A stretch of 14,041 bases of DNA from an uncultured Clostridia bacterium (GTDB taxonomy: Bacteria > Bacillota_A > Clostridia > TANB77 > CAG-508): positions 1 through 14,041 of the forward strand of contig CALXZR010000052.1 in the NCBI GenBank assembly GCA_944393295.1, written 5' to 3'. How positions within the stretch are numbered: the first letter of the stretch is position 1; each line of letters starts with the position of its first letter. Below the pieces are notes generated by a model. That model was not told the origin of the DNA. It saw nothing but the letters and a program-made list of their open reading frames with translations, and ran no database searches. Positions 689 to 13,314 of the stretch are shown piece after piece. A program made the position numbers and the translations under genes.

Positions 689-739
689 ATATGTTTTTCC
701 TTCGCAGGTACAATACTTAGCGCAGGTTTTATGAAAAAA

Positions 740-779
740 GGCACGAGGTCCATTAGCGTGGGCCTCGTGCCTCTTTTTT
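740..779. terminator. Strong bidirectional intrinsic terminator
   Basis: GGCACGAGGTCC (740-751) pairs with GGGCCTCGTGCC (760-771), a 12-bp stem with one T-G wobble and the 8-base loop ATTAGCGT. An A6 run lies on the left (734-739) and TCTTTTTT on the right (772-779), so either strand gives a hairpin plus U-tract. It ends the rightward gene at 134-688 and the leftward gene at 753-1442. The stop codon of the leftward gene (755-753) is inside the loop. Confidence 0.93.
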
Positions 780-1883: not shown

Positions 1884-2999
1884 CTATCCTTTATAGCCTA
1901 ACTTTACGGAAATCATAAAACTTTTTTCATTTCTTTGTATTTCTAAATTGACACTATCTCCTGGATTTTTAGTATATATATATCTTCTTAAATCATTCAT
2001 TTTGTTTACCTCTGTATCATCTATTTTTCTTATAATATCTCCTACTTGTAAACCAGATTTATATAATGGTCCATCTGCTATAATTTGTGCAACATAAATT
2101 CCACTTTCAAGTTTTAAGTTAGAATTCAAATATGGTATTACTTCTTTATCGTATCCATAAATTCCTAAATATGCTTCTTCAAATTTTCCAGTACTTTCTA
2201 ATTTTTCTATTATTGGTTTTATTATGTTTATAGGTACCGCAAATCCCATACCCTCAGCTGAAGTAATTTTTATAGAATTTATCCCTAACAAATATCCATC
2301 TTCTGAAATTAGTCCTCCTCCACTATTTCCTTCGTTAATTGTCGCGTCTGTTTGTATTAAATCTTCCATATAAGTATTTTCTGTTTCATTTTCTATTTTT
2401 ATTGTTCTATTCAATCCACTAATTATACCTTTTGTAACGGTCCTTTGAAACTCAAATCCTATTGGATTTCCTATAGCATATACTTCTTCTGCTAAATGTA
2501 AATTATCAGAATCTCCTAATTTTAAATATTTTAATTTGGCACTCGATATTTTAACAATTGCAATATCTATATTACTATCTGCCCATACTACATTTCCATT
2601 ATATATTTCCCCATTTTCTAATGTAACATAGCAATTGCTATATTTATTTCCTACAACATGTTGATTAGTTACAATATACCCATCTTCTGTAACTATTACA
2701 CCACTTCCTAATCCAAGACTTGTTTCAGCATTATTTAAAAATACACTAGTACCATTTTGCCTTAACTTTGAAATGCCAACAATACTTTCACTTGCTTCTT
2801 CAATTTTATTTACTACACTTTCCTCTTCTACTTGATTATTTTCTACTGAAAGATTTTTTGTATTATAATTACTTTGTGCACCAAAATTTACTTTTTCAAA
2901 TTTTAAATTTAAAGCTAAAAGCAACAAAATTATTAACAGTAAGCATATAATAAACAATATGCTATACCTTTTTTTAGGCTTTTGATTTTCATAATACAT
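1884..2999 (-). CDS. htrA: HtrA/DegP-type membrane-anchored serine protease with PDZ domain
   Basis: The 371-residue product has one N-terminal membrane anchor (about residues 12-32, extremely Leu/Ile-rich), a polar linker (33-75), a trypsin-like S1C protease domain (about 76-265) and one PDZ domain (about 275-368). The catalytic triad is intact: His114 in TNQHVVG, Asp145 in NIDIAIVK, and Ser226 in EGNSGGGL. This is the usual Firmicute layout (HtrA/YyxA/YkdA type), placing the protease outside the membrane for cleavage and quality control of misfolded envelope or secreted proteins. The GSGVIVTEDGYIVTN start of the fold and the GFAVPI strand before the PDZ are typical. The start ATG follows GGAAGGA on the minus strand with somewhat long spacing (10 bases). 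It is divergent from the NRPS operon across 174 bases. Family assignment is certain, and the exact paralogue name is not. Confidence 0.93.
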   Translation of the reverse strand: MYYENQKPKKRYSILFIICLLLIILLLLALNLKFEKVNFGAQSNYNTKNLSVENNQVEEESVVNKIEEASESIVGISKLRQNGTSVFLNNAETSLGLGSGVIVTEDGYIVTNQHVVGNKYSNCYVTLENGEIYNGNVVWADSNIDIAIVKISSAKLKYLKLGDSDNLHLAEEVYAIGNPIGFEFQRTVTKGIISGLNRTIKIENETENTYMEDLIQTDATINEGNSGGGLISEDGYLLGINSIKITSAEGMGFAVPINIIKPIIEKLESTGKFEEAYLGIYGYDKEVIPYLNSNLKLESGIYVAQIIADGPLYKSGLQVGDIIRKIDDTEVNKMNDLRRYIYTKNPGDSVNLEIQRNEKSFMISVKLGYKG

Positions 3000-3108: not shown

Positions 3109-3136
3109 TTGATTTTTATTTTCTTTATTATATAAT
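3109..3136 (+). promoter_or_regulatory. Sigma-A-type promoter of the NRPS operon
   Basis: TTGATT (3109-3114), a 16-base spacer and a perfect TATAAT (3131-3136) lie 38 bases before the NRPS start codon, giving a leader of about 30 bases. It is the best promoter match in the 174-base intergenic region shared with htrA. No operator palindrome was evident around it. Confidence 0.6.
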
Positions 3137-3173
3137 GAATTCGAATATTTAAATATTGCAAGGATGTAGAAAA

Positions 3174-6100
3174 ATGGAAAATAAATTATATAATTTAACT
3201 AACCCTCAAAAATCAATCTGGCTTACAGAACAATTTTACAAAAATACCAGTATAAACAATATTGTTGGCTACTTAAAAATAGAAAAAAATGTAAGCTTTG
3301 ATGCTTTGGAAAAAGCTTTTAATATTTTAGTTGCAAGGAACGATTCTTTTAAATTAAAATTTACTTTAGAAGAAAATAAACCTAAGCAATATTTGGGTGA
3401 ATTTATATATGAAAAATTAGAAATTATAGATTTAAAAGATGAATTACAATTAGAAGAATTTGAGAAAAATTATCCTAAAAAACCTTTTTCTTTAAATGAT
3501 AATTTCCTTTTTCGTGCAGTTTTATTAAGATTTCCAAACACTTCTGGAATTTTAGTTTTAGGTACACATCACTTAATTTCAGATGCTTGGACTATGACTT
3601 TAACTTTAAATGAAATTTATGATAATTATATAAAAATAGTTACTAATCAACCTATTTTAGAAGAAAAGAAGCCTTCTTATTTAGACTTTATAAATTCAAA
3701 TGAAATTTATCTAAATAGTGATAAATTTAAAAAGGATAAAGAATATTGGGATGAAAACTTTAAAGAACTTCCAAATATTATTTCTTTTAAAAATAATTCT
3801 AATTCAACTTCTTCAAATAGAAGAGTTTTCGACTTTGGAGAAAGTTTAATTAAAAAAATAGAAGAATTTTGTTTAGAAAATAAAATTTCAGTTTATATCT
3901 TTTTACTTGCAATATTCGGAATTTATTTTAGAAACATTTTCGATTCTAATAGATTTGTTATTGGAAACCCAGTATTAAATCGTTCAAATTTTAAAGAAAA
4001 GCATACTACAGGTATGTTCGTTACCGTTATGCCTTTTTTATTCAATATAAACGATACAAATAGCTTTGTAAAATTTACAGAAGCTCTTGCTAATGACCAA
4101 AAAAGAATGTATCGCCACATTAGATATCCATATCATGAAATTTTAAATCAAATTAGATTGGACCATGATTTTTCTGGAAATTTATACGACATTGTATTTT
4201 CATATCAAAATGCTAATATTCCAGATTTTTGCAAATGGCTTCCTAACTATGCTCAAGCAGAATCTTTACAAATCCATATAAAAAATTTAAATGAGAATAA
4301 AAATACATTATCTATCCATTATGATTATTTAACTGATATATTTTCAGAAGTAGATATTGAACAAATGCATGCTAAAATATTAAATATGATATCTCAAGCT
4401 TTAAAAAATAAAAACATGTTAATTTCAGATTTTGAAATTGTAAGTAAATCTGAAGAAAAATTTTTATTGCATAAATTAAATAAAACAAAATCTTCTTATC
4501 CAAGTTCTTCTAATATAGTTAAAGAATTTGAAAAAATTGTTAGAAAATATCCTAACAAAATTGCTGTTTCTAGCAATAAAGGAAGCTTAACATATAAAGA
4601 ACTTAATAATAGAGCAAATATTTTAGCAAAAAAAATATTAGATACAAATATACAAACGGAAATTGTTGCCTTTTCTTTAAATAGAGATATTTCTATTTAT
4701 GTAGCAATTTTAGGAATTTTAAAATCTGGTCATACTTATATGCCTATTGATCCAGATTATCCTATAGATAGAATTAATTTTATGCTTAAAAATAGTGAAA
4801 CTAAGATTTTAATTACAAACAAAGACTTTTCAAATAAAGTTGATTTTAAGGATACAATTATAGATTTTAATACAATATGCTTTGATAAAACAGAGAAAAA
4901 TCAAAATTTAAAAATTGCACCAGGTAAAAAGGCTTATATTATGTATACATCAGGCTCTACAGGAATACCAAAAGCAGTTGCAATAAAGCATTATAATGTT
5001 TTAAACTTTGCAAATGCTATGTATAAGAGATTAAACTATAATCCAGATAGTAATGAAATTGTACTCTCTGTAACCACTGTTTGTTTTGATATATTTGTTT
5101 TTGAGACTTTCCCTACTCTTTTGTCTGGGTTAACTTTATTTATTGCTGATGAATTAGAAGCTAGAAGTCCAAAACTACTTAGCGAAGTAATTAAAAAACA
5201 AAAAATATCAAAAATTTTAACAACACCTTCAAGAATACAACTTTTATTTGATGATAAAAAGTATACTTCATGTTTAAGCTTATTAAAAGAAATTATTTTA
5301 GGCGGAGAACCTTTCCCAGAAATTTTATTAAATAAATTAAAAAATATAACAAAAGCTCGATTATTGAATTTATATGGACCAACAGAAACTACTGTATATT
5401 CTGCATTTAAAGATTTAACTGATACAAACACAATTACTATTGGTAAACCTATTGATAACACTCAAATATATATTTTAAATAATAATAATAAATTGTTACC
5501 ACTAGGCAAAGTCGGAGAAATTTGTATTGGCGGAGCTGGTGTTGGTGCAGGATATTACAAAAATCCAGAAAAAACTAAAGCTAGTTTTATCGAAAATCCA
5601 TATATTCCAAATGACACCATATACAAAACTGGTGATTTAGGATATATAAATAAAAATAATGAAATAATCTGTTTAGGTAGAAAAGATCACCAAATAAAAA
5701 TAAGAGGTTATAGAATTGAATTAGATGATATTAGTAATAATATTATGACTTTTAAAGGTATTGATAAATGCGTAGTTATTGATAGATTAGATAAAAACAA
5801 TAAAAAATATTTAGCAGCTTATTTTACTTCTAAAGAAGAAATTGATGTTAATGAACTAAAAAAATATTTAATAGATTTACTACCTAATTATATGATTCCT
5901 TCTTATTTTGTAAGGCTTGATAAAATTCCATTAACTTTAAACCATAAAGTTGATAGAAAAGCTCTTCCAGAACCAAAAAAGGAAAATTTTATAAAAGAAG
6001 AAGTTATTTTACCTACTACTGAAACAGAAAAAATTCTTTATACTAATATAAAAAAGGAATTAAATATTTCTAAGCTTGGAGTTAATAATGATTTATTTAA

Positions 6101-7442
6101 TTTTAATATTGACTCTTTAGATATTATACGAATTCAAACAAGACTTCTAGAGGCTAATATTAAATTAAATACTCAAGATTTTTATAAATATAGAACAATA
6201 AAAGCTTTGGCAAATTTAATAGATTCAAAAGACGCAAAAGAAGAACCTAAGTATGACGAAATATATTTAAAAAATGTAAATAATAGCTTTTTTAAACACT
6301 CACAAATAATGAAATTTGAAAAACATACTTATAAAAATATTCTACTTATTGGTTCTACTGGATATTTAGGAATGCATCTTTTAGATGAAATTATTAATTC
6401 AACTAAAATAAATATAACCTGCATAATTAGAAACAAAAAAGAAATTTCTGTAGAAAAAAGATTGCAAGATTTATATAAGTTTTACTTTAATAAAAAATTA
6501 CCTTTAGATAGAGTTAACATTATAGAAGGTGATATAACAAAAAAATATTTGGGTATTACTAAAAATAACTATAATGAACTTGTTAAAAATATAGATTTAG
6601 TTATTAATACTGCAGCAAATGTGCGTTATTATGGAAATTATGAAGAATTTAAAAAAATTAATGTGGATTTACCTGTTGCACTTTCAGACTTTTGTTTAGA
6701 AAATAATATAAAATTTGTACATATTTCTACATTGGGTGTTTCTGGAAACTATCTAATTAATTTAGAGAAAAACTATAATATATTTAGAGAAGATGATTTT
6801 TATATAGGTCAAAGATACACAGAAAATGTATATATTCAAACTAAATTTGAAGCTGAAATGATGCTTTACGAAAAAGCTTCAAAAGGTTTAGATGTAACAA
6901 TTATAAGAGTAGGAAATCTTACTGGTAGATATTCTGATGGACATTTTCAAAAAAATATCGAAGAAAATGCTTTTTATAACATTTTACGAATGATATTAAA
7001 ATATAAAATTTTACCTAATACAATGCTAAATCAGTTTTTAGAATTTACTCCAATTGATTTATGTGCTAAAGCAATTAGTGCTTTAATACAAAATTTAGAT
7101 AGTACTAGATATGTATTTCATTTATTTAATCAAAACTATCTATCTGCTCAAAACTTAATTTCTATATTAAAAGAGCAAAATATAGATATTTCTATACTCT
7201 CTGGTAATGACTTTAAAACTCAGATATTAGATTTAAGTAAAAGTTACCCAGAAGAAAATATTCTAAAAGGTATTGTAAATGATTTAGATGATGAATTAGG
7301 TTTAACCTTTAACTCTACAGTACAGCAACAAAATATATATACAAATTTTTATTTAGAAAAATTAGGTTTCCATTGGCCTACTATAGACAAATTGTACATT
7401 GAAAAAATTATAAATTATATGAAAGAAAATAAATATATATAA
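3174..7442 (+). CDS. Single-module nonribosomal peptide synthetase, C-A-T-R (reductive release)
   Basis: This 1422-residue enzyme holds one full NRPS module. The condensation domain (about 5-435) has its active site HHLISDA (His132, His133, Asp137). The adenylation domain (about 443-930) carries LTYKEL (472), YTSGSTGIPK (591-600), FDIF (638), NLYGPTE (732-738), YKTGDL (817-822), GRKDHQIKIRGYR (835) and NHKVDRK with Lys925. In the thiolation domain (about 950-1015) the phosphopantetheine Ser981 sits in NIDSL instead of the usual GGHSL. The terminal thioester reductase (about 1050-1422, SDR fold) has GSTGYLG (1060-1066), Tyr1220 and Lys1224. Known chemistry of such domains: activate an amino acid, acylate it, then release the thioester with NAD(P)H as aldehyde or alcohol. 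An N-terminal C domain with no upstream module suggests an acyl donor, inferred product N-acyl amino aldehyde. ATG 3174 is preferred over TTG 3156 because AAGGATG (3160-3166) lies at correct spacing. Kinase genes follow after 13 bases. Confidence 0.93.
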   Translation: MENKLYNLTNPQKSIWLTEQFYKNTSINNIVGYLKIEKNVSFDALEKAFNILVARNDSFKLKFTLEENKPKQYLGEFIYEKLEIIDLKDELQLEEFEKNYPKKPFSLNDNFLFRAVLLRFPNTSGILVLGTHHLISDAWTMTLTLNEIYDNYIKIVTNQPILEEKKPSYLDFINSNEIYLNSDKFKKDKEYWDENFKELPNIISFKNNSNSTSSNRRVFDFGESLIKKIEEFCLENKISVYIFLLAIFGIYFRNIFDSNRFVIGNPVLNRSNFKEKHTTGMFVTVMPFLFNINDTNSFVKFTEALANDQKRMYRHIRYPYHEILNQIRLDHDFSGNLYDIVFSYQNANIPDFCKWLPNYAQAESLQIHIKNLNENKNTLSIHYDYLTDIFSEVDIEQMHAKILNMISQALKNKNMLISDFEIVSKSEEKFLLHKLNKTKSSYPSSSNIVKEFEKIVRKYPNKIAVSSNKGSLTYKELNNRANILAKKILDTNIQTEIVAFSLNRDISIYVAILGILKSGHTYMPIDPDYPIDRINFMLKNSETKILITNKDFSNKVDFKDTIIDFNTICFDKTEKNQNLKIAPGKKAYIMYTSGSTGIPKAVAIKHYNVLNFANAMYKRLNYNPDSNEIVLSVTTVCFDIFVFETFPTLLSGLTLFIADELEARSPKLLSEVIKKQKISKILTTPSRIQLLFDDKKYTSCLSLLKEIILGGEPFPEILLNKLKNITKARLLNLYGPTETTVYSAFKDLTDTNTITIGKPIDNTQIYILNNNNKLLPLGKVGEICIGGAGVGAGYYKNPEKTKASFIENPYIPNDTIYKTGDLGYINKNNEIICLGRKDHQIKIRGYRIELDDISNNIMTFKGIDKCVVIDRLDKNNKKYLAAYFTSKEEIDVNELKKYLIDLLPNYMIPSYFVRLDKIPLTLNHKVDRKALPEPKKENFIKEEVILPTTETEKILYTNIKKELNISKLGVNNDLFNFNIDSLDIIRIQTRLLEANIKLNTQDFYKYRTIKALANLIDSKDAKEEPKYDEIYLKNVNNSFFKHSQIMKFEKHTYKNILLIGSTGYLGMHLLDEIINSTKINITCIIRNKKEISVEKRLQDLYKFYFNKKLPLDRVNIIEGDITKKYLGITKNNYNELVKNIDLVINTAANVRYYGNYEEFKKINVDLPVALSDFCLENNIKFVHISTLGVSGNYLINLEKNYNIFREDDFYIGQRYTENVYIQTKFEAEMMLYEKASKGLDVTIIRVGNLTGRYSDGHFQKNIEENAFYNILRMILKYKILPNTMLNQFLEFTPIDLCAKAISALIQNLDSTRYVFHLFNQNYLSAQNLISILKEQNIDISILSGNDFKTQILDLSKSYPEENILKGIVNDLDDELGLTFNSTVQQQNIYTNFYLEKLGFHWPTIDKLYIEKIINYMKENKYI

Positions 7443-7455
7443 CTGGAGGTAATCT

Positions 7456-9459
7456 ATGAAGAAATTTTTAAAGAAATACAAAATACAATTAAAACTTCTG
7501 TTAGCTTTAACAATAGGATTAATAGTTCTATCCTCTGCTTTGTACTTTTTAATACCAATGATATTAAATTATCCAGAAGATACTTATGGAACTAGCTTTC
7601 AAACAGAGGTAGAAAATACCGTATATATATATCAGGTTATACTTATATCTTTAGCTATATTTCTTATCTTCGCAGTTATAATATTTGTAAAAACAAAATT
7701 CTTAGTTGATAATGAAGACTTGCTCGATAATCCTAAAAAATATAATGAAAAAGAAATTAATTTAGTAAAAGAAAGATTATTTAACGCTCCTTATTCAATT
7801 TTAGTATTAAACATTATAATTCCAAGTATTGCTTTAACTGTAATACATGCTTTTACAATACATCAACTTGGTATTACAACTTTAAAATTATTTATGCTTG
7901 TAGTTTCTTTTATTACACTATATGTTACAGCTGTTTTCATTTATATAAATAGCTTATTTAAGAAGATTTTAATAAAACTACCTGTAACTGATCTTTCTGA
8001 AGTAAAAAGAAGCTCTATAAAGAAAAGAATTGTATTTCATATTTTTCCTATTTTAGCAGCTTCACTTCTATTTATGACTCTTCTTGGATATGCAAAAACA
8101 GCTATTGAGAAAGGAAATTCTTCTTTTGAAGCTTACAGTAAAAGTTTAAAATACTTTTTTAGCTACAACCAAACAAATATTAATAATTTAGATGATTTAA
8201 TAAAAAAATGTAACTCTGATTTTGAATTATTAAACGAAAATGATATTTTCTTTATAAGACTTCCAAATGGAACTTTTATAAATAGAGATTACGAAAAAAT
8301 TGAATTTAGTGATTTCTTTGTAAAATATTTAAATGAACTATCTGATAAAAATGATGGCAGAGTTTACGAATATTATGGTATTGACGCTCAAGGTGCAACT
8401 TATAAATTATATATAAATGGTGAACTATATACTATAGGTGTATACTTTGATATTTTATCTATCAATGTTTTACGCTACTTTTTAATTGCATTTATAATTT
8501 TAATTATTATAGATATTATTATTTTAATGTTGTTTTCAAATTCATTTAAATATGACATTACTGTTATATCAGAAAAATTTACAAATATGTCAAAACATTT
8601 AAATGGAGATATTGAAAATAATTTAGTTGCAACTTCTAATGATGAAATTGGTGACCTTTGCAAAGCTTACAATGAAATTCAGGAATTAACTAAAAACAAT
8701 CAGGATATGCTAATAGAAAAAGAACGTTTGGCTTCTTTAGGTCAAATGATTGGTGGTATTGCTCACAACTTAAAAACACCTATTTTTTCTATATCTGGTG
8801 GTCTTGAAGGATTATCAGATTTAATTAAAGAATATGATACTTCAATTGAAGATCCTACTGTAAATAATAAAGACATGCATGATATTGCAAAAGACATGAA
8901 TGAATGGATAATAAAACTTAAGGAACATGTTTCATATATGTCTGATGTTATTACTGCAGTAAAAGGGCAAGCAGTAACTCTTTCTGAGGATAATGTACAA
9001 GACTTTAATGTTGATGAATTATTTAAATATGTAGATATTTTAATGAAACATGAGTTAAAAAACTCTTTAACAACACTAAATATTACAAATAATGTAAATA
9101 ATTCAATTATGATACATGGGAATATAAATGGCTTAGTGCAAGTTATAAATAATATTATCTCAAATGCAATTGAAGCTTACAATAAAGAACCTAATAAAGA
9201 AATAAATTTGAAATCTTCTGTAACTTCAAATAATAAAATATTAATTGAAATTCAGGATTTTGGTCCTGGACTTCCAGAAGAAGTCAAAGATAAATTATTT
9301 AAAGAAATGATTACTACGAAAGGAAAAGATGGAACCGGCCTTGGATTGTTTATGTCTTATTCTAATATAAAAGCTCAGTTTAATGGAAATTTATATTTTA
9401 AATCAGAACCTCAAGAAGGTACTACTTTTTATATAGAAATACCTATAGAAAAACAATAA
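7456..9459 (+). CDS. Sensor histidine kinase 1 with six membrane segments and large outer loop
   Basis: The 667-residue kinase has membrane segments near residues 12-37, 58-79, 112-133, 143-166, 193-212 and 337-361. An external region of about 125 residues (213-336) lies between the last two; it may be Cache-like, but I cannot assign a fold. A HAMP-like linker (362-413) leads to the dimerisation helix with phospho-acceptor His437 in GGIAHNLKTP, then the HATPase_c domain with N-box NNIISNA (565-571), DFGPG (601-605) and GTGLGL (626-631). All kinase motifs are present. The base after His is Asn rather than the usual Glu/Asp, a feature shared with kinase 2. GGAGGT (7444-7449) precedes the ATG, 13 bases after the NRPS stop, so it is probably co-transcribed. 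The likely partner is the HD-GYP regulator at 11381. Ligand unknown; the NRPS product is a candidate by position only. Confidence 0.92.
   Translation: MKKFLKKYKIQLKLLLALTIGLIVLSSALYFLIPMILNYPEDTYGTSFQTEVENTVYIYQVILISLAIFLIFAVIIFVKTKFLVDNEDLLDNPKKYNEKEINLVKERLFNAPYSILVLNIIIPSIALTVIHAFTIHQLGITTLKLFMLVVSFITLYVTAVFIYINSLFKKILIKLPVTDLSEVKRSSIKKRIVFHIFPILAASLLFMTLLGYAKTAIEKGNSSFEAYSKSLKYFFSYNQTNINNLDDLIKKCNSDFELLNENDIFFIRLPNGTFINRDYEKIEFSDFFVKYLNELSDKNDGRVYEYYGIDAQGATYKLYINGELYTIGVYFDILSINVLRYFLIAFIILIIIDIIILMLFSNSFKYDITVISEKFTNMSKHLNGDIENNLVATSNDEIGDLCKAYNEIQELTKNNQDMLIEKERLASLGQMIGGIAHNLKTPIFSISGGLEGLSDLIKEYDTSIEDPTVNNKDMHDIAKDMNEWIIKLKEHVSYMSDVITAVKGQAVTLSEDNVQDFNVDELFKYVDILMKHELKNSLTTLNITNNVNNSIMIHGNINGLVQVINNIISNAIEAYNKEPNKEINLKSSVTSNNKILIEIQDFGPGLPEEVKDKLFKEMITTKGKDGTGLGLFMSYSNIKAQFNGNLYFKSEPQEGTTFYIEIPIEKQ
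8707..8800 (+). repeat. Kinase-core direct repeat, copy 1
   Basis: This 94-base segment around the H-box of kinase 1 matches 10622-10715 in kinase 2 at 87 of 94 bases. All seven differences are synonymous, so 31 residues are identical. It is the most conserved part of the duplicated kinase halves. Confidence 0.85.
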
Positions 9460-9475
9460 AAACTTTTATTATTTA

Positions 9476-9504
9476 TTGACTTATTTTTAATTAAAGGTAA
9501 TAAT
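9476..9504 (+). promoter_or_regulatory. Possible internal promoter between the two kinases
   Basis: TTGACT (9476-9481), a 17-base spacer and AATAAT (9499-9504) form a near-consensus sigma-A promoter in the 94-base gap after kinase 1. It would allow kinase 2 and the response regulator to be expressed apart from the NRPS. No terminator is seen after kinase 1, so read-through is also expected. Confidence 0.5.
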
Positions 9505-9520
9505 ATATTGTAGATTATTA
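9498..9520. promoter_or_regulatory. Inverted repeat over the internal -10 region
   Basis: TAATAAT (9498-9504) and ATTATTA (9514-9520) are exact reverse complements, 9 bases apart, covering the -10 box and presumed start point of the internal promoter. It could be an operator, but in DNA this rich in AT a 7-base match is not rare. Confidence 0.25.
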
Positions 9521-9553
9521 TATATACATAAGAAAAATTCGGAGGATTTATAA

Positions 9554-11368
9554 ATGAATATCTTGTTTTATTCGTTTACTGTAGCAGTATTTTTGGCAAT
9601 AATAATTGCATTTTTAATATATTTGCTAAAAGCTATTACTAAAACTCAACTACAACAAATTTTTGCTGTAAACTTAATTTTATTAATTGTTGCATTTTTA
9701 TTTATGTTTCTACAAATACAATTTAGTGGAAAATTAGATATAGATCCTATTTATTTTGATTATTACTCCTATATTGGAATTGTATTTTTGCCGGTATCTA
9801 TATTTTTTACAGCAATTATATTTACAAATACAAAGATACGTTTCAAACCACAATATTTACTTTTTTGCGTAATTCCTATTATATCATTACTTCTATTGTG
9901 GACAAATAATGTACATCACCTATTTTTTAAAGAATATTCTATTCAACTTTCAGACTGTGTATTTGGTCCTTGGTTTTATGTACATGAAATATACACTTAT
10001 TTATTATATGGTTTAGCTATAATACATTTAGTAAATTATTTTAAAAAGAATTCTGGAATATTTAGTCAACAAATAAATTTAATTGTAACTGGAACAGTTT
10101 TCCCTTTTATTATAAATTTACTTGGAACATTAGGAATAATAAAGCTTACAGTTTATATTACACCAATTGCTCTTGCTATATCTTTAATTTGTTTTGCTAT
10201 TGCTTTATTTAAATTTCAACTTTTAAGTGCATTACCAATTGCTCTTACAAAAATAGTTAATAGAATTTCTGATGGATATATTGTTTTAAATGATAAAAAT
10301 ATAATTACAGATTATAATACTCCTTTTAAACAAATATTTAATATAGAAAATTTAGATATAAAGCAAATTCATATTTTTGATTTGCTTTCAATGGAAGAAT
10401 TTAACGGTTTAGATGAAAATACTATAATAAAAGCTCTTAAAGCTGTAGTAGATTCTAATGAAACTCTAATTTTTGAACAGGAATTTCCTAATATTGAAAA
10501 ATATCTACGTTTAGAAATAAACAGTATCAAATCTGATGGTGTATTTATCGGAGCTCTAATATTAATTAAAGATTTAACTCAACACCACAAAGACTTAGAA
10601 GCTATTAAATCAAGTCAAAATATGTTAATTGAAAAAGAACGTTTAGCATCTCTAGGTCAAATGATTGGTGGTATTGCACATAACTTAAAAACACCTATTT
10701 TTTCTATATCTGGTGCTGCAGAGGGCTTAACCGACTTAATCAATGAATATAGAACATCTATTACAGATTCAACTGTTACTGTTGAAGATCATTATGCAAT
10801 AGCAAAAGATATGGAAGATTGGATTGAAAAAATTAAAAATTATACATCTTATATGTCTGATGTAATTACAGCTGTTAGAGGACAGGCAGTTGCACTTACA
10901 AATGATGTAGACGAAACCTTTACAATAGAAGAACTTGTAAAAAGAGTAGATATTTTAATGAAACATGAATTAAAATCAGCTTTAATAAACTTAAATGTTT
11001 CAATTCAAACAGATAAAAATTTTGAAATGCATGGTAATATTAATAGTTTAGTTCAAGTAATTAATAATATTATTTCAAATGCAATTCAATCTTACAATGG
11101 AAAACCAGATCAATCTATTGATCTTTCTATCTTTAAAGAAAATAAAAAAATAATAATTACAATTACAGATTATGGCTGTGGAATGAGCGAGGAAGTACAA
11201 GAAAAATTATTTAAGGAAATGATTACTACAAAGGGAAAAAATGGAACTGGACTTGGTTTATTTATGTCTTATTCTAATATAAAGGCTCAGTTTGATGGAG
11301 ATTTGAAATTTACTTCTGAAGAAGGAAAGGGATCAACTTTCAATTTAATAATACCAATTAAAAAGTAA
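9554..11368 (+). CDS. Sensor histidine kinase 2, 7TM-type N-terminus with PAS domain
   Basis: The 604-residue kinase begins with about seven membrane segments (near 4-26, 36-57, 68-92, 99-117, 140-162, 173-195, 199-222). This matches the histidine-kinase N-terminal 7TM family; its hallmark TNNVHHLFF is at 117-125, with FGPWFYVHEIYTY after it. A PAS-like domain follows (about 230-345, starting ISDGYIVLNDKN). The kinase core has His376 in GGIAHNLKTP, N-box NNIISNA (504-510), DYGCGM (539-544) and GTGLGL (564-569). The core is almost a copy of kinase 1, while the sensor halves do not resemble each other, as expected after duplication and sensor exchange. The ATG follows a GGAGG (9541-9545). The response regulator starts 12 bases after its stop and is the obvious phosphotransfer partner. 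The 7TM family is thought to bind small molecules; the ligand here is unknown. Confidence 0.92.
   Translation: MNILFYSFTVAVFLAIIIAFLIYLLKAITKTQLQQIFAVNLILLIVAFLFMFLQIQFSGKLDIDPIYFDYYSYIGIVFLPVSIFFTAIIFTNTKIRFKPQYLLFCVIPIISLLLLWTNNVHHLFFKEYSIQLSDCVFGPWFYVHEIYTYLLYGLAIIHLVNYFKKNSGIFSQQINLIVTGTVFPFIINLLGTLGIIKLTVYITPIALAISLICFAIALFKFQLLSALPIALTKIVNRISDGYIVLNDKNIITDYNTPFKQIFNIENLDIKQIHIFDLLSMEEFNGLDENTIIKALKAVVDSNETLIFEQEFPNIEKYLRLEINSIKSDGVFIGALILIKDLTQHHKDLEAIKSSQNMLIEKERLASLGQMIGGIAHNLKTPIFSISGAAEGLTDLINEYRTSITDSTVTVEDHYAIAKDMEDWIEKIKNYTSYMSDVITAVRGQAVALTNDVDETFTIEELVKRVDILMKHELKSALINLNVSIQTDKNFEMHGNINSLVQVINNIISNAIQSYNGKPDQSIDLSIFKENKKIIITITDYGCGMSEEVQEKLFKEMITTKGKNGTGLGLFMSYSNIKAQFDGDLKFTSEEGKGSTFNLIIPIKK
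10622..10715 (+). repeat. Kinase-core direct repeat, copy 2
   Basis: Second copy of the 94-base H-box segment, 87 of 94 bases equal to 8707-8800, with only synonymous changes. A further near-identical stretch in both genes encodes MSYSNIKAQF near the 3' ends (about 9351-9380 and 11263-11292). Confidence 0.85.
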
Positions 11369-11380
11369 AAGGAGAACATT

Positions 11381-12433
11381 ATGAGACATTCAGAAAGTAC
11401 AGGCAATATTAGCCCATACAAAATTATTGCTGTTGATGATGAAGGCGGAATTATAGATTCGTTATCTGTATTTTTAAAACGTTCTGGATATCAATTAACA
11501 GGTTGTACAAATCCATTAGAAGCAATTGAACTTGTTAGAAATGAGCATTTCGATTTAATGCTTTTAGACTTTATTATGACACCTATTCATGGTGATAAAG
11601 TTGTAGAAGAAATTAGAAAATTTAATCAGGAATTATATATTTTGCTATTAACTGGTCATAAAGACTTAGCTCCTCCTCTCGAAACTATAAAACGTCTTTC
11701 AATACAAGGATATTGTGAAAAAAGTGATAAATTTGATCAATTATTACTATTAATAGAATCTGCTTTAAAGTCAATTGAACAAATGAATTTAATAAAGAAA
11801 ATCAATAATGAACTTAAAGAATCACAAGAAAGCCTTGAAAAAGCTTATTTGGAAAGTATACAAACTTTAAGGTATACTGTAGAAGCTAAAGATAGATATA
11901 CTAGAGGTCATTCAGACAGAGTTGCTGAATTTTCAGTTCTTATTGGAAAATATATGGGATTATCTGAAGATGATTTGAAAACCTTACGTATAGGTGGACT
12001 TTTCCATGATATTGGAAAAATTGGAATTCCAGATGCAATACTTCTAAAAGAAGGTAAGCTAGATGATAATGAATACTCTGAAATTAAAAATCATCCAAGT
12101 ATTGGTAAACATATACTATCAAATGCAAGTATATTTTCTAGTATAATACCTATTGTTTATCATCATCATGAAAAATATAATGGTACTGGATATCCAGAAC
12201 AATTAGCGGGTGATCAAATACCTTTATTTGCAAGAATAGCTGCTGTTGCAGACACATTTGATGCAATGACTTCAAAACGTTCTTATAGAAATGCTATTCC
12301 TCTTGAATATGTACGTGCTGAAATAGAAAAATGTTCTGGAACTCAATTTGATCCCCAAATAGCAAAAGTCTTCTTAGATATTTTAGATAATCACTATGAT
12401 GAAATACTAAAAATTCAAAATAAATATACTTAA
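11381..12433 (+). CDS. Response regulator with HD-GYP output domain
   Basis: The 350-residue protein has a receiver domain (about 13-130) with acidic pair Asp19/Asp20, phospho-acceptor Asp63 in LLDFIMTP, Thr91 and Lys114. A coiled linker (about 130-160) leads to an HD-GYP phosphohydrolase domain (about 160-345) with metal-binding and signature residues intact: His177 in GHSDRV, His209-Asp210 in HDIGK, the HHHEKYNGTGYP block (261-272) and DTFDAMTS (291-298). HD-GYP proteins of this type cleave cyclic di-GMP, and some cleave cGAMP. Output is therefore a change in second messenger rather than DNA binding. AAGGAG precedes the ATG, 12 bases after kinase 2, so the pair is one transcription unit. 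It is the only regulator in the window and may serve both kinases, given their shared catalytic cores. Confidence 0.94.
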   Translation: MRHSESTGNISPYKIIAVDDEGGIIDSLSVFLKRSGYQLTGCTNPLEAIELVRNEHFDLMLLDFIMTPIHGDKVVEEIRKFNQELYILLLTGHKDLAPPLETIKRLSIQGYCEKSDKFDQLLLLIESALKSIEQMNLIKKINNELKESQESLEKAYLESIQTLRYTVEAKDRYTRGHSDRVAEFSVLIGKYMGLSEDDLKTLRIGGLFHDIGKIGIPDAILLKEGKLDDNEYSEIKNHPSIGKHILSNASIFSSIIPIVYHHHEKYNGTGYPEQLAGDQIPLFARIAAVADTFDAMTSKRSYRNAIPLEYVRAEIEKCSGTQFDPQIAKVFLDILDNHYDEILKIQNKYT

Positions 12434-12498: not shown

Positions 12499-13314
12499 AT
12501 GAATTTAAAAGAAACAAAAAAAGATGCTCGTACCCGTTTAGCTGGCAAATGGCCAAAAGCATTAATAATTACTTTAATTTATTTAGCAGTAACTTTAGCA
12601 ATTAATTATTTTTCATCTTATACTGTTGGTTTAGCTCAAAACATTCCTATTTTACAACTTTTAATATATTTAGTTGTTATTGCAGCTATATTACCATTAT
12701 CTTATGGAGTTACAGCAACATTTTTAGACTTTTCTAAAAACAAAGAAGTTAGTTATACTGATTTTATTAACAAAGGAGTTTTAGCTTTTTCAAAAGTTTG
12801 GGCTATAATTTTTAGAATCTTATTAAAAGTTATTGTTCCAATTCTTATTTGTATAGTTGTATTTACTGTATTTATTTTAATTTGTACATACAATTTTGGA
12901 ATAAGTGATGAAAATATAGTTACTTACCAATATATGTTTGCAACTTGCTATATTGTAGTTATGTTAGTTTTTCTAATAAAATTTTTACCTTATGCCTTAT
13001 CTTTTATAATTTTAGCTGATAATCCAGAATATTCTCCAAAAGAAATTTTAGATAAGAGTGCAGAACTTATGAAAAATAGAAAACTAGAATATTTTACACT
13101 TTGTTTATCTTTCTTAGGATGGATTTTATTAATAGCAATAGTAAGTATAATAGTTACAATGGCAGTAAAAAATACATTAGCTACTGATATAATTTCTAAT
13201 ATAGGAACAGTAATTTTATCACCTTATATTTTAATTAGCCAAATAGTTTATTACGAAAAAGCTAGTAGTAAGATTGAAAATAGTGAAAAAGATACTGAAA
13301 AACAAGAAAGTTAA
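12499..13314 (+). CDS. DUF975 family integral membrane protein
   Basis: The 271-residue product begins with a short basic amphipathic segment (LKETKKDARTRLAGKWPKA), the hallmark start of DUF975 (YciC-like) membrane proteins, then has about six membrane segments (near 20-38, 52-74, 104-131, 146-172, 198-222, 232-250). The NPEYSPKEILDKSAELMKNR loop between segments 4 and 5 and the final PYILISQIVYYE are also typical. The molecular function of the family is unknown. AAGGA sits before the ATG. The gap from the response regulator is 65 bases, with a TATAAT at 12441-12446 but no good -35, so it could be the last gene of the operon or independent. It ends at a strong terminator shared with tex. Confidence 0.88.
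   Translation: MNLKETKKDARTRLAGKWPKALIITLIYLAVTLAINYFSSYTVGLAQNIPILQLLIYLVVIAAILPLSYGVTATFLDFSKNKEVSYTDFINKGVLAFSKVWAIIFRILLKVIVPILICIVVFTVFILICTYNFGISDENIVTYQYMFATCYIVVMLVFLIKFLPYALSFIILADNPEYSPKEILDKSAELMKNRKLEYFTLCLSFLGWILLIAIVSIIVTMAVKNTLATDIISNIGTVILSPYILISQIVYYEKASSKIENSEKDTEKQES

What the first reader, a model, noticed from the sequence alone, without database searches (positions are those of the whole stretch)
3109..12433. One-module reductive NRPS in the same gene set as two sensor kinases and an HD-GYP regulator
The sequence shows C-A-T-R NRPS, kinase, kinase and HD-GYP regulator in one direction with gaps of 13, 94 and 12 bases. Reductase-ended NRPSs of gut clostridia are known to make reactive peptide aldehydes and pyrazinones. 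Dedicated kinases and a cyclic-dinucleotide hydrolase beside such an enzyme suggest a self-sensing circuit: the enzyme makes a small membrane-soluble N-acyl amino aldehyde, the kinases detect it, and the regulator lowers c-di-GMP. I know of no described system with this arrangement.
Basis: partly seen in the sequence, partly recalled or inferred. Interest (0 to 1): 0.75.

Follow-up and report, generated by a model that had tools for sequence, protein, structure and literature searches.

The report
Swappable peptide-synthetase signalling cassette in Clostridia
Some Clostridia carry a small-molecule-making enzyme directly beside the sensor protein that probably detects its product, and the two appear to be swapped between species as a matched pair, as in some known bacterial communication systems; no product or signalling has been measured.

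Summary
In detail: C-A-T-R NRPS, two histidine kinases and a REC-HD-GYP regulator, gaps 13/94/12 bp. The linkage is conserved: in one family a kinase directly follows the NRPS in 60 of 60 higher-scoring and 15 of 18 weaker-scoring loci, in the class in 19 of 40. The kinase family is in 40 of 40 NRPS genomes and 0 of 20 without an NRPS match.

Main result: the kinase is a mosaic. Residues 1 to about 400 follow the NRPS; the catalytic half follows HD-GYP and flanking genes. One pair of genomes shares NRPS plus sensor at about 100% DNA identity between 78-90% flanks; another has 90-94% flanks around unrelated-looking NRPS and sensor. Known agr/ComQXP signalling cassettes behave so.

I infer that the NRPS makes a small molecule, probably an N-acyl amino aldehyde, read by its paired kinase, with HD-GYP output. 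In the window HK1 is the paired receptor; HK2 looks like a constant partner. Product, binding and c-di-GMP effect are untested.

The parts
3174..7442 (+). One-module NRPS: C about 3183-4469, A about 4527-5975, T about 6048-6221, R about 6336-7439
   Evidence: with the HK1 sensor it forms the variable block in relatives
7456..8700 (+). HK1 sensor half (residues 1 to about 415): membrane helices and an extracellular alpha/beta domain (model residues about 245-333); the end is approximate
   Evidence: boundary from the sliding windows and the breakpoints
8701..9459 (+). HK1 catalytic half (H-box near residue 437, HATPase_c 556-665)
   Evidence: nearest to the first kinases of L169 and L006
9554..11368 (+). 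HK2, 7TM histidine kinase (PF16927 residues 11-228), probably a constant second input
11381..12433 (+). REC-HD-GYP response regulator
1884..2999 (-). HtrA-like protease: neighbour, in 44 of 60 family regions but 3 of 40 class regions; not part of the unit
12499..13314 (+). DUF975 membrane protein: neighbour, also downstream in a number of family loci

Best explanation
The locus is a self-sensing, quorum-sensing-like system with a nonribosomal peptide synthetase as signal synthase. Shown by comparison: (1) a kinase of one family directly follows the NRPS across a bacterial family and in part of the class; (2) the kinase's sensor half and the NRPS form one co-inherited, exchangeable block, while kinase core, HD-GYP regulator and flanking genes form another. 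Inferred: (3) the NRPS makes a small product, probably an N-acyl amino aldehyde; (4) the paired sensor half detects it, so synthase and sensor must change together, giving pherotype-like alleles; (5) the kinase phosphorylates the REC-HD-GYP regulator, whose cyclic-dinucleotide hydrolysis changes cell behaviour; (6) in some other lineages c-di-GMP acts back on the synthase through a fused PilZ domain. In the window HK1 is the paired receptor and HK2 a second, constant input.
For: Linkage: 60 of 60 and 15 of 18 family loci, 19 of 40 class loci. Co-occurrence: kinase in 40 of 40 NRPS genomes, on the NRPS contig in each, and in 0 of 20 genomes without an NRPS match. Mosaic, n=32: r(sensor, NRPS)=0.90, partial 0.89, p=2e-4; r(core, NRPS)=0.33, partial -0.11. 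Window scan along the kinase shows the switch near residues 390-420. NRPS and sensor trees share 16 supported splits, core and HD-GYP 14, cross pairs 6-7 with 11-17 contradicted. Of 43 pairs with core identity >=75%, 31 have NRPS <50% and sensor <40%, 12 have NRPS >=60% and sensor >=55%, 0 are mixed. DNA breakpoints in two pairs coincide. PilZ-NRPS fusions.
Against: No experiment; no product known. Co-absence could partly reflect incomplete draft genomes, because the genes are adjacent. Exchange tracts must end in conserved DNA, so breakpoint position alone does not prove function. Sensor distance against A-domain code vanishes once NRPS distance is controlled (0.004 and -0.10). With flank controls (n=16) sensor-NRPS is weaker (Spearman 0.33, partial 0.40), sensor keeps some tie to Tex (0.365 given NRPS), and core-HD-GYP is 0.46 (partial 0.064). 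HK2-type loci are blurrier in one test (n=12). HD-GYP is adjacent in 41 of 60 family and 12 of 40 class loci, lies on another contig in G062 and G131, and occurs in 12 of 20 genomes without NRPS at 1e-30, 4 of them below 1e-100. c-di-GMP context is thin in the family: PilZ 0 of 25, c-di-GMP-I riboswitch 3 of 20. Only one phosphopantetheinyl-transferase match of AcpS size per NRPS genome, 20 of 20, so how the T domain is loaded is open.
Confidence: 0.65

Rival explanations
1. Pathway-internal feedback: the kinase senses the NRPS product, but to tune dosage or protect the producer rather than to signal between cells.
For: The same linkage and co-inheritance fit; reactive aldehydes could need control (inference).
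Against: Feedback alone does not obviously call for repeated exchange of synthase-sensor alleles between otherwise similar loci; the regulator has no DNA-binding domain in Pfam.
Confidence: 0.2
2. The kinase senses an outside cue and controls the NRPS, whose product serves competition or host interaction; sensor and NRPS travel together because they are adjacent and too divergent to recombine between them.
For: Breakpoints fall at the edge of the conserved kinase half, as homologous recombination would require; the A-code gives no extra signal.
Against: It does not explain why the sensor half is about as divergent as the NRPS (mean distance 0.68 against 0.60) while the core is at 0.36, nor a kinase family tied to NRPS genomes.
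Confidence: 0.12
3. Chance or neighbourhood conservation: the genes sit together only because gene order is conserved in the family.
For: In the family HtrA (44 of 60) and Tex (28 of 60) are often in the region too.
Against: In class loci the flanking genes I identified differ (MutS2, P-type ATPase, guanylate kinase, M14 peptidase) while NRPS and kinase stay together; NRPS and flanks have discordant histories.
Confidence: 0.03

Closest known systems
RpfF-RpfC-RpfG (DSF quorum sensing of Xanthomonas)
   Same: Synthase, membrane histidine kinase and REC-HD-GYP regulator as one pathway; RpfG hydrolyses c-di-GMP (PMC5391125, passages)
   Different: Synthase is an NRPS, not RpfF; kinase lacks the REC and HPt domains of RpfC; Gram-positive hosts; product unknown
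ComQXPA of Bacillus (pherotypes) and agr of staphylococci
   Same: Highly polymorphic signal loci with groups that talk among themselves (PMC4008528, passages); for both, variable synthase/signal/sensor against conserved kinase core and regulator (that detail recalled)
   Different: Signal made by an NRPS rather than from a peptide gene; regulator output is HD-GYP, not DNA binding
Reductase-ended NRPSs: AusA (aureusimines) and gut clostridial clusters of Guo et al. 2017 (recalled; paper not held)
   Same: Terminal reductase; AusA is the best NCBIfam match and AusA's reductase is among the solved relatives
   Different: 636 bits against an AusA cut-off of 2500; one C-A-T-R module; other R-ended NRPSs of the class (for example L201-L207) have no kinase next to them

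Membership tests
Rpf/DSF system | RpfF-type (crotonase fold) synthase | tested here: not met
   the synthase position holds a C-A-T-R NRPS
Rpf/DSF system | hybrid kinase with REC and HPt domains | tested here: not met
   Pfam shows only HisKA/HATPase_c, and 7TM in HK2
Rpf/DSF system | REC-HD-GYP response regulator in the same gene set | tested here: met
agr/ComQXP-type pherotype locus | synthase and sensor half co-vary; kinase core and regulator conserved | tested here: met
agr/ComQXP-type pherotype locus | ribosomal peptide precursor as signal | tested here: inconclusive
   no ORF of 60 aa or more lies between NRPS and kinases on +; shorter precursor genes were not sought
agr/ComQXP-type pherotype locus | DNA-binding output of the regulator | tested here: not met
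   output is HD-GYP
Quorum-sensing system in general | diffusible product acting on the paired receptor in a density-dependent way | not testable with these tools
   needs chemistry and reporters
AusA aureusimine synthetase | NCBIfam equivalog cut-off, two-module enzyme | tested here: not met
   635.8 against 2500 bits, matching positions 991-2370 of 2373
HD-GYP phosphodiesterase | HD and HHE...GYP motifs | tested here: met
   FHDIGK and HHEKYNGTGYP in the window protein; both search patterns in 45 of 55 linked-locus regulators
HD-GYP phosphodiesterase | hydrolysis of c-di-GMP | not testable with these tools
   the best sequence match in the PDB is a 3'3'-cGAMP phosphodiesterase

The most novel reading that the evidence does not exclude
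An undescribed class of cell-cell communication: NRPS-made small molecules are private signals, each matched to a co-inherited half-kinase; Clostridia exchange these synthase-sensor cassettes between species and so change pherotype, with HD-GYP/cyclic-dinucleotide output and, in some lineages, synthesis of the signal gated by PilZ.
Probability: 0.5. Interest if true: 0.93.

Novelty: new variant of a known kind. Interest (0 to 1): 0.86.

Why it matters
Reductase-ended NRPSs of gut clostridia are known for reactive products (recalled), but their use to the producer is open; this gives a testable one. The paired synthase-sensor alleles are ready-made reagents: each sensor predicts which extract it answers, so sensors could be used to find the unknown molecules. 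It would add non-ribosomal small molecules with HD-GYP output to Gram-positive signalling. One PilZ-NRPS relative is recorded from Pseudobacteroides cellulosolvens, which may allow work in culture; its neighbouring genes were not checked.

Tried and rejected

Literature: 9 of 10 searches; those aimed at NRPS with kinase, HD-GYP or signalling listed no paper that, from title and start of abstract, describes this arrangement. The library holds open-licence papers only. Passages were read in PMC11448209, PMC6694145, PMC4008528, PMC13220807, PMC8895600 and PMC5391125; all others were seen as listings.

Searches took 25 weaker genomes: 6 (G015, G098, G138, G155, G212, G296) have only an adenylation-type hit without this layout; G024 and G084 were not fetched; one gave 18 NRPS loci: 15 linked directly, L258 with one ORF between, L257 (a second NRPS of G006) and L267 not linked. 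Class: 40 regions from 39 of 69 genomes with a match. The 20 NRPS-less genomes are those listed, of 60. Mosaic tests used single kinase ORFs of at least 560 aa with an HD-GYP over 320 aa; loci with kinases in pieces, such as L116, fell out. Class reverse test: of the 29 best kinase places 22 lie at an NRPS by coordinates; three (G554, G457, G656) sit at contig ends behind a piece of an NRPS-like C-terminus; G574:C46 is uncertain; G574:C208, G509 and G485 have a PilZ-module gene instead. Most of the weaker places fetched lie elsewhere.

Full report
What is there. On the + strand the window holds a one-module NRPS (C-A-T-R), histidine kinase HK1, 7TM histidine kinase HK2 and a REC-HD-GYP response regulator, with gaps of 13, 94 and 12 bp. 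Upstream and divergent lies an HtrA-like protease; downstream a DUF975 protein and, on the other strand, an S1-domain gene that I call Tex-like (the name Tex is mine). The NRPS probably starts at ATG 3174. HK1 and HK2 are 58% identical over a 303-residue alignment of their kinase halves; the other segments reported are negligible. The regulator carries FHDIGK and HHEKYNGTGYP, motifs of HD-GYP enzymes (recalled); its nearest solved relative by sequence is a cGAMP phosphodiesterase.

Is the linkage real? The window's own genome is not held. L001 (NRPS 59% identical, uncultured Clostridium) has HtrA, NRPS, kinase and HD-GYP in the same order, with one kinase only. In the family of its genome 330 of 390 genomes have an NRPS-like match. 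I fetched 60 regions from among the higher-scoring places, one per genome (best-segment identity 33-81%). A kinase follows on the same strand in 60 of 60, with a gap of 30 bp or less in 50; median 12 bp. HD-GYP follows the kinase(s) directly in 41 of 60, and in 3 more the region or contig ends there. Against selection bias I took 25 weaker-scoring genomes: 6 lack an NRPS of this layout, 2 were not fetched, and of 18 NRPS loci in the other 17 genomes 15 have the kinase next, one has an ORF between and two have none. In the class (391 genomes, 69 with a match at 1e-100) 19 of 40 fetched regions are linked and 21 are not; among the unlinked the next gene is, where I looked, a MatE protein (L201) or an iron alcohol dehydrogenase (L203). 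On an NRPS tree of 105 rows the linked ones cluster: 5 changes of label against a shuffled mean of 20.2. In class regions the flanking genes I identified are MutS2, a P-type ATPase, guanylate kinase and M14 peptidase, so the unit persists in different surroundings.

Reverse test. The kinase family (E<=1e-30) is in 40 of 40 NRPS-bearing family genomes, on the NRPS contig in each, and in 0 of 20 genomes without an NRPS match. Incomplete drafts could lose both adjacent genes together, so this is strong but not clean. The HD-GYP relative (E<=1e-30) is in 20 of 20 NRPS genomes and in 12 of 20 without, four of these below 1e-100; in G062 and G131 it lies on another contig than the NRPS. In the class, 22 of the 29 best kinase places are at an NRPS by coordinates and three more sit behind an NRPS-like piece at a contig end; most weaker ones fetched are not linked.

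The mosaic kinase. I split HK1-type kinases just before the H-box and compared pairwise distances (n=32). Sensor distance follows NRPS distance (r=0.90; partial 0.89 given core and HD-GYP, p=2e-4); core distance does not (0.33; partial -0.11). Along the kinase, windows over residues 1-390 correlate with the NRPS (Pearson 0.71-0.88) and little with HD-GYP (0.20-0.34); from 421 on it is the reverse (HD-GYP 0.62-0.82, NRPS 0.19-0.41). With flank controls (n=16, rank correlations) the core follows Tex (0.74) and HtrA (0.71) and the NRPS does not (-0.15, -0.02); here sensor-NRPS is weaker (0.33; partial 0.40, p=4e-4), core-HD-GYP is 0.46 (partial 0.064), and the sensor keeps some tie to Tex (0.365 given NRPS). 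Trees agree: NRPS and sensor share 16 supported splits, core and HD-GYP 14, cross pairs 6-7 with 11-17 contradicted. The NRPS along its length follows the sensor (0.60-0.86) rather than core or HD-GYP (0.12-0.41). The result survives removal of redundancy (n=21: 0.74 against 0.15) and distance correction (0.79 against 0.27). Of 43 pairs with core identity of at least 75%, 31 have NRPS <50% and sensor <40%, 12 have NRPS >=60% and sensor >=55%, none is mixed; over all 496 pairs none has NRPS >=60% with sensor <45%, or NRPS <50% with sensor >=50%. HK2-type loci show the same in one test (n=21, partial 0.77) and a blurrier picture in another (n=12). A-domain code adds nothing once NRPS distance is controlled.

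Examples. L157 and L122: HtrA 93%, core 94%, HD-GYP 97%, Tex 96% identical in protein, but NRPS 36% and sensor 32%, with A-codes DVAFLGGICK and DILTLGVIWK. L123 and L122: about 100% DNA identity from about 150 bp before the NRPS to about kinase codon 400, then 85-92% in the kinase core, with HtrA 81%, HD-GYP 84%, DUF975 78% and Tex 90% in DNA. The window shows a like history: its HK1 core is nearest the first kinases of L169 (71%) and L006 (69%), which carry 7TM-type sensors, L169 with a two-module NRPS and L006 with an NRPS read in several pieces, while its HK1 sensor is nearest L117-L119 (55-56%). Among 75 kinases of at least 560 aa, HK1-type occurs only with one-module NRPSs (40 of 40), HK2-type with one (14), two (20) or three (1); this is confounded by descent. 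Window HK2 is 63% identical to the second kinase of L169 and 65% over residues 132-602 to that of L006, so it looks like a constant partner.

Mechanism. The NRPS has C, A, T and R domains; such R domains release aldehydes (established for related enzymes, recalled). A leading C domain and, in 9 of 60 family loci, an acyl-CoA-ligase-like neighbour suggest an N-acyl group. The A-code DIFTIGLVYK is unresolved, and codes differ among linked loci, which fits different signals. The HK1 sensor model has membrane helices and an extracellular domain with weak likeness to Cache/PAS ligand-binding domains. The best reading is synthase, product, matched sensor, kinase, HD-GYP. The c-di-GMP step is weakest in the window's family: GGDEF-family hits in 20 of 20 genomes, GGDDF or GGDEF motifs in 7 of 8 read, PilZ in 0 of 25, c-di-GMP-I riboswitch in 3 of 20. 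Only one AcpS-sized phosphopantetheinyl transferase match was seen in each of 20 NRPS genomes. Elsewhere the link is direct: the linked NRPS of L195 begins with a PilZ domain; the database holds nine such proteins, L195's own included, with RxxxR in 9 and [DN]xSxxG in 6. A source names L195's protein Acetivibrio alkalicellulosi but flags it as unverified contamination; another is from Pseudobacteroides cellulosolvens. In G509, G485 and G574 a free-standing relative of that 545-residue module (28% identity, E 4e-64, for G509) takes the NRPS position before kinase and HD-GYP.

Comparison. The gene logic is that of RpfF-RpfC-RpfG (PMC5391125, passages); the polymorphism recalls ComQXPA pherotypes (PMC4008528, passages) and agr (recalled). 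It is a member of neither: synthase, kinase layout or output fail defining features. I found no description of it in the searches named under Tried and rejected.

Limits. No experiment was done; the genomes used are unnamed, mostly in many contigs; the cassette pattern may in part reflect where recombination can happen. I put 0.65 on the product-sensing, signalling reading.

Noticed in passing
L195:10701-16337 (-); P0244-P0252: NRPSs with an N-terminal PilZ module of about 545 residues in front of C-A-T.
   Followed up: partly
L236:3854-5485, L237:4176-5807, L239:3147-4778: A free-standing 543-aa relative of that PilZ module sits 2-3 bp before the kinase in place of an NRPS; residues after the PilZ part have no convincing Pfam match and might be another synthase.
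   Followed up: partly
C-termini of the NRPSs of L184, L186, L189, L190: Instead of a reductase or thioesterase these share a C-terminal region of roughly 375-400 residues with, at best, faint NAD-binding matches: possibly another release or modification domain.
   Followed up: partly
L177:6685-8196, L180:7489-8997: HD-GYP regulators of some class loci are longer, REC-DUF3369-HD.
   Followed up: no
L250-L254: Tandem kinases of the same broad family without an NRPS; in L252 they follow IspD and ABC-2 transporter genes.
   Followed up: no
L116:2093-5993 (-): In the closest relative both kinases are in two overlapping ORF pieces each, by real frameshift or draft error; left as found.
   Followed up: no
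window 739-772: Terminator-like hairpin (15 pairs, 9 GC) between the 184-aa ORF and the Pr6Pr-like gene.
   Followed up: no
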